Below are positions 5,700 to 49,046 of a DNA stretch of 64,000 bases, in pieces. The stretch's first letter is position 1; each line of letters opens with the position of its first letter. The stretch spans positions 930,001 to 994,000 of the forward strand of contig JAEPNY010000001.1 in the NCBI GenBank assembly GCA_017643165.1, written 5' to 3'. Below the pieces are notes generated by a model. It was not told the origin of the DNA and searched no databases. It saw only the letters and a program-made list of their open reading frames with translations. The DNA comes from Psychroserpens sp. (lineage in GTDB: Bacteria > Bacteroidota > Bacteroidia > Flavobacteriales > Flavobacteriaceae). The translations under genes and the position numbers were made by a program.

Positions 5700-6155
5700 T
5701 TACGATTTAAGTTGCCTTAATCCTTCATAAATAATAATACTCACAGCATTGGCGAGGTTTAAGCTTCTAATATGTTGACTATACATTGGAATCTTATAGA
5801 TTTGATCTTGAAAATTATCTAGTAAAGATGACGAGAGTCCTACAGATTCTTTGCCAAATACTAAAAAGAGTTCTTCTTCAAAATCAATATCCCAATGCAT
5901 TTTTTCGCCATGACTCGAGAAGAGTGCAAAGCTTTTATCACGATGTATTTCGAAAAATTGTTTTGAGGATTCATAGATGTGAATATCTAAATGCTGCCAA
6001 TAATCTAATCCTGCCCGTTTTAAACGACTATCACTAATTTCGAAACCGAAAGGTTTAACCAAGTGCAATGTAGAACCTGTTGCTAGGGCTAGTCGACCTA
6101 TATTTCCTGTGTTGTTAGGGATTTCGGGTTCAATTAGAACAATATTAAGCGCCAT
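5700..6155 (-). CDS. trmL: tRNA (cytidine/uridine-34-2'-O)-methyltransferase TrmL
   Basis: SPOUT-class methyltransferase that modifies the wobble ribose of tRNA-Leu. The start MALNIVLIEPEIPNNTGNIGRLA and the knot motifs LVFGKESVGL and SLNLANAVSIIIYE define the TrmL group (151 residues, usual length). It begins only 5 nt after trpA stops, so it is probably the last gene of the trp transcript. A link between tRNA modification and tryptophan synthesis is not established; sharing the transcript may simply reflect genome compaction. Confidence 0.93.
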   Translation of the reverse strand: MALNIVLIEPEIPNNTGNIGRLALATGSTLHLVKPFGFEISDSRLKRAGLDYWQHLDIHIYESSKQFFEIHRDKSFALFSSHGEKMHWDIDFEEELFLVFGKESVGLSSSLLDNFQDQIYKIPMYSQHIRSLNLANAVSIIIYEGLRQLKS

Positions 6156-12463: not shown

Positions 12464-12498
12464 TAAAAAAAGGCTTGTCGTGATTGACAAGCCTTTTT
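12464..12498 (-). terminator. trp attenuator: intrinsic terminator before trpE
   Basis: On the minus strand a 10-bp perfect stem (arms at 12486-12495 and 12470-12479, AAGGCTTGTC on the plus strand) with a six-base loop is followed directly by a run of T. It sits between the leader peptide and trpE, where a read-through-controlled terminator belongs. The plus-strand heptamer gtcgtga at 12477-12483 is the exact reverse complement of tcacgac at 12534-12540 inside the leader. Pairing these two would break the terminator stem and could act as antiterminator. Confidence 0.88.
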
Positions 12499-12528
12499 GA
12501 TATTTTAAGTTAAATTATACCTACAGGG

Positions 12529-12591
12529 TTAGCTCACGACGTTTGAAATTCGATAAGACCACCACCAAGTATGATTTAAAACTGTGTTCAT
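12529..12591 (-). CDS. trpL: trp operon leader peptide with three tandem Trp codons
   Basis: A 20-codon frame (ATG at 12591, TAA ending at 12529) starts about 10 nt after the predicted transcription start and reads MNTVLNHTWWWSYRISNVVS. Three consecutive TGG codons in so short a frame just upstream of trpE and an intrinsic terminator are the signature of ribosome-stalling attenuation. When Trp-tRNA is scarce the ribosome should stall on the TGG run and favour the alternative pairing. The start has the A-rich upstream context (AATTAAAAAC) usual in Bacteroidota. It is too short for ordinary gene callers. Confidence 0.87.
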   Translation of the reverse strand: MNTVLNHTWWWSYRISNVVS

Positions 12592-12607
12592 GTTTTTAAT
12601 TGTTGGT

Positions 12608-12637
12608 CAAATATAAACATCAATTTTCAGTTTTCAA
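12608..12637 (-). promoter_or_regulatory. trp operon promoter, Bacteroidota type
   Basis: On the minus strand TTG (12637-12635) is followed after exactly 19 nt by TATATTTG (12615-12608), matching the flavobacterial TTG-N19-TAnnTTTG consensus. Transcription should start near 12601, about 10 nt before the leader peptide ATG. Confidence 0.75.
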
Positions 12638-12646
12638 ACAATTCCG

Positions 12647-48649: not shown

Positions 48650-48652
48650 GGA

Positions 48653-49046
48653 GGTGGAGTCGGAGGGATTCGAACCCTCGTCCAAACAAGCTATTAAAGA
48701 GCTTTCTACACGCTTAGTTTATTCTTGGTTTTTCGATCGTAAGCTGGCTATAAACAACCTACTTACAACTTAGCTTCTTAATCTCGATAGTGCATCAAAG
48801 CCCTACACTATCTTAGTTAATATTTACGATGCCTCTAAATAGAACGCCATTAACCAAGGCTTTCTGGAGACATTTAGCTCTCCTACCTAGTAGGACGAGG
48901 CTTAATCTTACTGTAATTCAGATTAGGCAGCTAAAGCGTAGTTATTCTCGCCGTTTAAAGTTTGACCTAGCCTTTTACGTGTATCATGGTCGTTACACGA
49001 CGTGCTTACCGTTTAATGAGTCTCGCTGTCAAAACCAGTCGACCCC
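48653..49046 (-). ncRNA. ssrA: Transfer-messenger RNA (tmRNA)
   Basis: Rescues stalled ribosomes. The 5' end GGGGTCGACTGGTTTTGACA pairs with the 3' end CGACTCC to form the acceptor stem (one G-U), and the T arm carries GGTTCGAATCC. The tag frame at 48952-48923 codes for GENNYALAA followed by TAA, the flavobacterial tag. Length is about 394 nt. The bases after the acceptor are A-C-C-T rather than A-C-C-A, so the terminal A is probably added by tRNA nucleotidyltransferase. A terminator follows. Confidence 0.95.

What the first reader, a model, noticed from the sequence alone, without database searches (positions are those of the whole stretch)
12464..12637. Complete trp attenuator in a flavobacterium: promoter, WWW leader peptide, alternative pairing, terminator
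Within 175 bp upstream of trpE lie a TTG-N19-TATATTTG promoter, a 20-residue frame with three consecutive TGG codons, and a 10-bp intrinsic terminator ending about 10 nt before trpE. The leader heptamer at 12534-12540 is the exact complement of a terminator-loop heptamer at 12477-12483, giving a candidate antiterminator. Attenuation by tandem Trp codons is established in enterics; all elements are seen here directly, but the switching is inferred.
Basis: partly seen in the sequence, partly recalled or inferred. Interest (0 to 1): 0.8.

Follow-up and report, generated by a model that had tools for sequence, protein, structure and literature searches.

The report
Tryptophan attenuator with loop-targeting antiterminator
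The stretch in front of this marine bacterium's tryptophan genes is a member of a catalogued family of tryptophan-sensing switches, and comparing it with relatives suggests that the switch works by grabbing the tip of its own stop signal rather than the usual first half of it.

Summary
The element is not new: it scores 72.3 bits (cut-off 49) to Rfam RF01692 Bacteroid-trp (Weinberg et al. 2010), and was noted upstream of trp in Flavobacterium psychrophilum. Of 80 trpE loci from close relatives, 79 keep it whole and one is cut by a contig end.

The added result concerns the heptamer pairing; the Rfam model ends before the terminator loop. In 211 distinct leaders from four families, leader segment r2 (here GUCGUGA) pairs with the terminator loop plus the start of the descending arm (r3, UCACGAC): 1491 of 1688 cells, against 1369 (sd 7) when partners are permuted, with changes on both sides at loop positions. 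r2 lies at a fixed distance from the Trp codons and at the leader stop codon, so a ribosome that finishes hides it and one stalled at Trp codons leaves it free. The E. coli antiterminator uses the ascending arm; so, by predicted pairing, do another family, five leaders of a further one, and this genome's his leader. Switching is inferred; nothing was tested experimentally.

The parts
12608..12638 (-). promoter TTTG-N19-TATATTTG (Bacteroidota type; consensus recalled)
   Evidence: read; TAnnTTTG box within 60 nt upstream of the first TGG in 135 of 138 same-family units, 25 of 29 f12, 21 of 30 f11, 19 of 19 f2, 1 of 14 f3
12529..12591 (-). leader peptide ORF MNTVLNHTWWWSYRISNVVS, stop TAA 12531-12529
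12559..12567 (-). three consecutive Trp codons (control codons)
   Evidence: three TGG in 135 of 138 same-family units, two in the other 3
12510..12579 (-). leader hairpin (1:2) that holds r2 in the fold of the whole leader
   Evidence: MFE and centroid of the leader RNA with the terminator formed. Against it: in shorter, nascent-like fragments without a ribosome r2 pairs with r3 instead, and the short local part of the hairpin is weak in the window on its own (57 of 100 shuffles as good)
12534..12540 (-). r2, antiterminator strand GUCGUGA, overlapping the end of the leader ORF
   Evidence: covariation with r3; position fixed to Trp codons and stop codon
12467..12498 (-). intrinsic terminator hairpin, loop AAUCAC 12485-12480
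   Evidence: listed on the + strand by the scan
12477..12483 (-). r3, UCACGAC: terminator loop (4 nt) plus start of descending arm (3 nt), partner of r2
12465..12471 (-). U-run of the terminator
12486..12611 (-). match to Rfam RF01692 Bacteroid-trp, 72.3 bits
11053..12453 (-). trpE, first gene of the controlled operon trpEGDCFBA (down to 6161)

Best explanation
A leader-peptide transcription attenuator of the trp operon. Transcription starts just before a 20-codon leader ORF. If tryptophanyl-tRNA is plentiful, the ribosome runs through WWW to the stop codon, which lies on or next to r2, and covers r2; the terminator forms and RNA polymerase leaves before trpE. If tryptophanyl-tRNA is scarce, the ribosome stalls on the Trp codons upstream of r2 (r2 starts 27 nt after the first TGG here), covers or opens the strand that would otherwise hold r2, and leaves r2 free; as the terminator loop leaves RNA polymerase, r2 pairs with the loop and the first bases of the descending arm, so the hairpin cannot nucleate around its loop and transcription goes on into trpE. 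Shown here by sequence comparison: leader, control codons, terminator, r2:r3 pairing, and the spacing of Trp codons, r2 and stop codon. Inferred: stalling, timing, and that the pairing prevents rather than promotes termination.
For: RF01692 match. 79 of 80 loci chosen by TrpE, not by the leader, carry leader, r2 and terminator, and the 80th (L062) is cut by its contig end but keeps r2 and terminator. r2:r3: 1491 of 1688 cells form standard pairs; permuting partners gives 1368.6 sd 7.2, none of 1000 as high; permuting within families 1456.8 sd 7.4, none of 1000; over 64 distinct combinations 438 of 512 against 395.1 sd 5.1, none of 1000. Sliding r2 by 1-4 nt either way gives 383-752. Loop positions change on both sides: position 6 is G-C 141, A-U 51, U-A 9, G-U 6, unpaired 4; position 5 U-A 155, U-G 43, G-C 7, C-G 1, A-U 1, G-U 1, unpaired 3. 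Extreme cases: L146 GUCGCAAU with AUUGCGAC; six f2 units GUUGGUUC with GAACCGAC and L235 GUUGAUUC with GAAUCGAC. Geometry: r2 starts 26 or 27 nt after the start of the first TGG in 135 of 138 same-family units, the leader stop is within -10..+9 nt of r2 in 138 of 138 and within -9..+12 in 205 of 211 overall, against 50 and 77 of 211 for the other two frames. Equilibrium folding of exposed RNA two bases past r3: with the ribosome at the third Trp codon the antiterminator dominates in 131 of 138 and the terminator in 2; with it at the stop codon the antiterminator in 1 and the terminator in 137. No TrpR-family repressor found in the genome.
Against: No expression data. Within single families the covariation is thin: in f1 alone 36 of 1000 permutations reach the observed pairs, f12 11 and f11 76 of 1000, and energy permutation over f11+f12 shows nothing (1236 of 2000). 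The r2 duplex with loop and descending half has at most 5 of 100 shuffles as good in 103 of 138 f1 but only 7 of 29 f12, 13 of 30 f11 and 9 of 19 f2 units, and the ascending half passes the same test in 23 of 138 f1. In f1, position 1 and position 8 pair in only 61 of 138 each, and three units (L085, L088, L109) have A for C in the loop with r2 unchanged. For the 14 f2 units counted, cognate duplexes beat permuted ones with the ascending half too (0 of 2000 for either), and in four of them (L230, L231, L233, L242) the ascending half is slightly the stronger. Once the whole hairpin is exposed the terminator wins at equilibrium in 130-138 of 138 f1 units in every state; the E. coli trp leader shows the same flip, so this is not decisive, but the lead time here is shorter. 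With no ribosome the model is mixed at two bases past r3 (antiterminator 43, terminator 88 of 138 f1), and in the window itself the antiterminator dominates there.
Confidence: 0.8

Rival explanations
1. Classical enteric topology: the leader strand that competes with the terminator pairs with its ascending arm, and the r2/loop complementarity is secondary.
For: It is what the E. coli trp leader does, what family f3 and five f2 leaders appear to do (duplex with ascending half) and what the his leader of this genome appears to do (14 of 14 loci of the genus examined, out of 18 hisG loci fetched). The ascending half passes the shuffle test in 23 of 138 f1 units.
Against: In the window the best duplex with the ascending half is -5.6 kcal/mol (52 of 100 shuffles as good) against -11.4 with loop and descending half (4 of 100). 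In f1 the descending side is stronger by 2 kcal/mol or more in 88 of 138, the ascending in 6, and 44 lie within 2. Covariation is at loop positions.
Confidence: 0.08
2. r2 and the terminator loop form a kissing or pseudoknot contact that co-exists with the hairpin and tunes pausing or termination, instead of excluding the hairpin.
For: The outer stem GGCUU/AAGCC does not overlap r3, so both could form together (inference from the sequence); the terminator wins at equilibrium once fully exposed.
Against: If the contact promoted termination, starvation would shut off the operon, the wrong sense for a biosynthetic operon (established logic). Not excluded by sequence.
Confidence: 0.12
3. Ordinary terminator of the upstream gene (yceI-like, 13290-12718, same strand) or a constitutive dampener with no sensing.
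For: The upstream gene is on the same strand.
Against: That gene has a terminator-like hairpin of its own at 12686-12657, before the promoter; WWW leader, spacing and r2 are kept in the relatives.
Confidence: 0.02
4. A trans-acting protein reads the strongly conserved terminator sequence, with the leader peptide incidental.
For: The stem sequence GGCUUGUC is kept beyond what pairing needs in the same family; reason not found.
Against: No TrpR match in the genome; Trp codon run and stop position are tied to r2. Other proteins were not searched.
Confidence: 0.05

Closest known systems
Rfam RF01692 Bacteroid-trp (Weinberg et al. 2010, PMC2864571)
   Same: The window element is a member: full-length model match 1-131, 72.3 bits, cut-off 49; Table 1 of the paper lists the motif as cis-regulatory 'y', Bacteroidetes (passages seen).
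   Different: The model ends at the ascending arm and holds neither the loop nor the descending arm nor an antiterminator; its consensus stem fits the window with 12 positions marked as non-standard. The paper's additional files with motif descriptions were not available.
E. coli trp attenuator (trpL, yardstick)
   Same: Short leader peptide with tandem Trp codons, alternative pairings, intrinsic terminator in front of trpE; terminator gains at equilibrium once the descending arm is exposed.
   Different: The E. coli antiterminator uses the ascending arm and is complete before any of the descending arm is exposed; here r2 pairs with loop plus descending arm and forms only about when the loop leaves the polymerase.
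his leader of the same genome (L248); a 5' element of hisG is reported for Flavobacteriaceae (PMC9723704, one section and passages seen)
   Same: His-run leader peptide, terminator, pairing strand at the leader stop codon.
   Different: The strand CUCAAGCG pairs with the ascending arm and first loop base (CGUUUGAG), that is, the classical topology. The paper does not describe the pairing in what I saw.
trp leader of Flavobacterium psychrophilum (PMC6414381, one passage seen)
   Same: Bacteroid-trp element stated to be conserved upstream of its trp operon.
   Different: No test of the mechanism in the passage seen.

Membership tests
Rfam RF01692 Bacteroid-trp | covariance-model score at or above the curated cut-off | tested here: met
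   72.3 bits against 49, model 1-131 complete
Rfam RF01692 Bacteroid-trp | upstream of tryptophan biosynthesis genes in Bacteroidota | tested here: met
   trpEGDCFBA follows; nearest named TrpE is Psychroserpens, 89%
Leader-peptide (ribosome-mediated) transcription attenuator | short ORF with a run of codons for the end product of the operon | tested here: met
   WWW at codons 9-11; kept in relatives
Leader-peptide (ribosome-mediated) transcription attenuator | intrinsic terminator between leader and first gene | tested here: met
   consensus scan names the hairpin on the + strand
Leader-peptide (ribosome-mediated) transcription attenuator | mutually exclusive antiterminator supported by covariation | tested here: met
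   pairing covaries across families; weak within single families
Leader-peptide (ribosome-mediated) transcription attenuator | expression rises on starvation for the amino acid through stalling at the control codons | not testable with these tools
   needs an experiment
Enteric (E. coli type) trp attenuator | strand 2 pairs with the ascending arm of the terminator | tested here: not met
   ascending half -5.6 against loop+descending half -11.4 kcal/mol in the window; covariation with the loop
Enteric (E. coli type) trp attenuator | match to an Rfam enteric trp leader model | tested here: not met
   only RF00023 and RF01692 reach their cut-offs in the window
T-box | match to the T-box model | tested here: not met
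   no T-box at cut-off in the window
TrpR repression in addition to attenuation | TrpR-family protein in the genome | tested here: not met
   PF01371: 0 of 1 genomes; of 14 control genomes it rings in 2, E. coli and B. subtilis

The most novel reading that the evidence does not exclude
In most of the Bacteroidota trp leaders examined, the antiterminator works by loop capture: the leader strand seizes the terminator loop and the first descending bases just as they leave RNA polymerase, a later and narrower decision point than in the E. coli attenuator. Another lineage (f3), part of f2, and the his operon of the same genome use the classical ascending-arm topology, so the wiring has switched while leader peptide, control codons and operon stayed.
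Probability: 0.55. Interest if true: 0.55.

Novelty: new variant of a known kind. Interest (0 to 1): 0.38.

Why it matters
As an element it confirms a catalogued family and would rate 'already known'. What is added is a comparative case for the missing half of its mechanism: a covarying antiterminator that takes the terminator loop and descending arm, placed at the leader stop codon. If it works so, attenuation here needs close coupling of ribosome and polymerase in a phylum where such coupling is, to my knowledge (recalled), little studied, and a single genome holds both topologies (trp and his), which allows a side-by-side test. The listings of seven searches of the held library (one search showed 12 of 22 papers) and the passages of the papers opened showed no description of this pairing; the supplement of Weinberg 2010, where it might be drawn, was not available, so priority is open.

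Tried and rejected
Rejected: terminator of the upstream gene (own hairpin); ascending-arm pairing in the window; a second copy of the UCGUGA...UCACGA...U5 arrangement in this genome (three overlapping matches, all the trp site; backward control pattern 1 match); TrpR; T-box.

Led nowhere or weak: the local hairpin between r2 and the strand just before it, which pairs r2 by four or more pairs in 210 of 211 MFE structures and is on average more stable than shuffles, but has at most 5 of 100 shuffles as good in only 39 of 138 f1, 9 of 29 f12, 11 of 30 f11, 6 of 14 f2, and is not supported in the window on its own; within-family covariation in f3 and in f11+f12; ilvD neighbourhoods: the window's genome has no ilvD match, and of ten loci looked at (L266-L275; L276, L277 not looked at) only one frame, in L269, passed the script's filter and looks like chance. 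My first terminator finder was too strict (64 of 81, some of them other hairpins) and was replaced.

Rows dropped: of 247 sequences (window and loci) given, nine gave no unit (L059, L062, L073, L094, L095, L097, L103, L182, L236; L182 and L236 were not looked at further) and eight exact duplicates were removed, leaving 230. 211 of these (f1, f12, f11 and 14 of 19 f2) went into the r2:r3 counts. The 14 f3 units and five f2 units (L135, L234, L237, L244, L246) were set aside because their clear duplex was with the ascending arm, a choice that favours the count; four f2 units in which the ascending half is slightly stronger (L230, L231, L233, L242) were kept. Loci were found by the RF01692 model or as nearest TrpE relatives, so diverged leaders are under-sampled. 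Families f2, f3, f11, f12 are unnamed in the tool.

Full report
What was checked. The finding lies on the minus strand of a Flavobacteriaceae genome (nearest named TrpE: Psychroserpens, 89% identity). The operon runs trpE, trpG, trpD, trpC, trpF, trpB, trpA. Upstream of trpE: promoter-like TTTG-N19-TATATTTG 12638-12608; leader ORF 12591-12529, MNTVLNHTWWWSYRISNVVS; terminator 12498-12467 with 13 pairs and loop AAUCAC; U-run to 12465; trpE start 12453. The leader RNA folds with z -3.88. The consensus scan lists the hairpin on the + strand, since on the minus strand its U-run is counted into the stem.

It is a known family. The Rfam scan gives RF01692 Bacteroid-trp at 12611-12486, 72.3 bits, cut-off 49. 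The family comes from Weinberg et al. 2010 (PMC2864571; Table 1 row and other passages seen). PMC6414381 (one passage seen) says that the element is conserved upstream of trp in F. psychrophilum, and PMC9723704 (one section and passages seen) reports strong clues for leader-peptide attenuation in front of amino-acid operons and a conserved 5' element of hisG. RF01692 is found in 208 of 299 genomes of the same family, 48 of 392 of a phylum sample, 41 of them in the same family, and 62 of 118, 44 of 151, 14 of 121 and 21 of 100 in four other families of the class, called f12, f11, f3 and f2 here, with filters that lose weak matches.

Conservation not selected by the leader. Of 80 loci fetched as nearest TrpE relatives, 74 showed a WW-containing leader within 350 bp of trpE (75 of 81 with the window); five more (L059, L094, L095, L097, L103) carry leader and terminator further upstream, and the last (L062) is cut by its contig end but keeps r2 and terminator. 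In L059 and L094 a GIY-YIG gene lies in between. These are close relatives, so this is not a phylum-wide rate.

The antiterminator. 230 distinct units were cut out. In 211 of them (138 f1, 29 f12, 30 f11, 14 of 19 f2) r2 and r3 were read at fixed positions of an alignment made without structure. 1491 of 1688 cells pair; permuted partners 1368.6 sd 7.2, maximum 1392 in 1000; within-family permutation 1456.8 sd 7.4, maximum 1481; 64 distinct combinations 438 of 512 against 395.1 sd 5.1, maximum 414. Slid registers give 383-752. The telling positions are 5-8 of r2, which face loop bases in the f1 terminators (in f11 and f12 part of them also pair inside the longer stem): GUGA/UCAC in most f1, GUAAG/CUUAC or CUUGC in f11 and f12, GCAAU/AUUGC in L146, GGUUC/GAACC and GAUUC/GAAUC in f2. 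Single families vary too little for a strong test of their own (permutations reaching the observed value: f1 36, f12 11, f11 76, f2 0 of 1000). In f1, positions 1 and 8 pair in only 61 of 138 each, positions 2-7 in 134-138.

Geometry. r2 begins 26 or 27 nt after the start of the first TGG in 135 of 138 f1 units, in different reading frames (phase 2 in 105, phase 0 in 31, phase 1 in 2), so the nucleotides and not the amino acids are kept; in f12 and f11 it begins at 25-30. The leader stop codon lies within -10 to +9 nt of r2 in 138 of 138 f1 and within -9 to +12 in 205 of 211; the first stop of the other two frames does so in 50 and 77 of 211. In 89 of 138 f1 units the stop codon begins 4 nt after the start of r2, where the UGA of UCGUGA lies. 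A ribosome at the stop codon would therefore cover r2.

Co-transcriptional model. Equilibrium folding of the RNA between an assumed ribosome edge (A-site plus 12 nt, recalled) and an assumed polymerase exit gives, two bases past r3 in f1: ribosome at the first, second, third Trp codon, antiterminator dominant in 125, 131, 131 of 138 and terminator in 8, 2, 2; ribosome at the stop codon, terminator dominant in 137 of 138; no ribosome, mixed (43 antiterminator, 88 terminator). Five bases past r3 the stalled states already favour the terminator in 130, 119, 87 of 138. In the window the no-ribosome state favours the antiterminator up to three bases past r3 and the terminator at five. With everything exposed the terminator wins in 130-138 of 138. 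The E. coli trp leader, treated in a similar way, also turns to the terminator when the arm is exposed, but its antiterminator is already complete before any descending base is out. So the decision here would be later and narrower. This is thermodynamics on fragments, not kinetics.

Two topologies. In f3 (14 units) and five f2 units the stronger leader duplex is with the ascending half (f3: 11 of 14 by 2 kcal/mol or more, 3 within 2), for example L137 GGCAGCC with GGUUGCC and L135 UCAAAGUCUU with AAGACUUUGA. Cognate energies beat permuted ones for f3 plus these five (0 of 2000) but not for f3 alone (576 of 2000); for the other 14 f2 units they do so for both halves. The his leader of the window's genome, MTFIQTHHHHFHTCPQAS, and 13 relatives of its genus pair a CUCAAGCG-type strand with the ascending arm (ascending stronger than descending in 14 of 14 examined, of 18 hisG loci fetched). 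So the same genome appears to hold both wirings.

What is shown and what is inferred. Shown: parts, family membership, covariation of r2 with loop and descending arm, fixed spacing. Inferred: that a stalled ribosome frees r2, that r2 binding prevents termination, and the sense of regulation. The search listings and the passages opened gave no description of the loop pairing, but the supplement of the 2010 paper was not seen, so priority is open. The novelty label refers to the pairing; the element as such is already known.

Noticed in passing
L094 4670-4954, L059 4512-4925 (a similar reading-frame end in L095, L097, L103, seen): A GIY-YIG domain gene (PF01541, E 5.6e-17 and 1.1e-13) sits between the trp attenuator and trpE in these two loci, so it would be placed under Trp control. 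Three further loci show a similar frame just before trpE, not scanned.
   Followed up: partly
L044, L050, L062, L019, L020, just after the attenuator terminator: Short imperfect palindromes of the type CTGAA..TTCAG follow the terminator in several species (by eye). One search found no such palindrome around the GIY-YIG genes of L059 and L094.
   Followed up: partly
L248 (G000 C2 around 642366, minus): The genome of the window has a his leader peptide with HHHH and a terminator upstream of hisG, with predicted pairing to the ascending arm. RF01692 matches the genome only at trp.
   Followed up: partly
L136, L139, L137, L138: The trp attenuator precedes a trpB-like gene in L136 and L139 and a trpD-like gene in L137 and L138 (by eye against the window proteins), so it seems to stay with whichever gene leads the operon.
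   Followed up: no
Flavobacteriaceae units, terminator stem GGCUUGUC / GACAAGCC: The outer part of the terminator stem (GGCUU/AAGCC) is kept almost letter for letter in many units although neither r2 nor the stem alone requires that sequence. Unexplained.
   Followed up: no
window 5700-6155 minus: A TrmL-type tRNA 2'-O-methyltransferase gene (TIGR00185, 169.4 bits, below its cut-off of 190.6) follows trpA by 5 bases on the same strand and may belong to the operon.
   Followed up: no
window 48652-49046 minus: tmRNA gene (RF00023, 150.2 bits).
   Followed up: no
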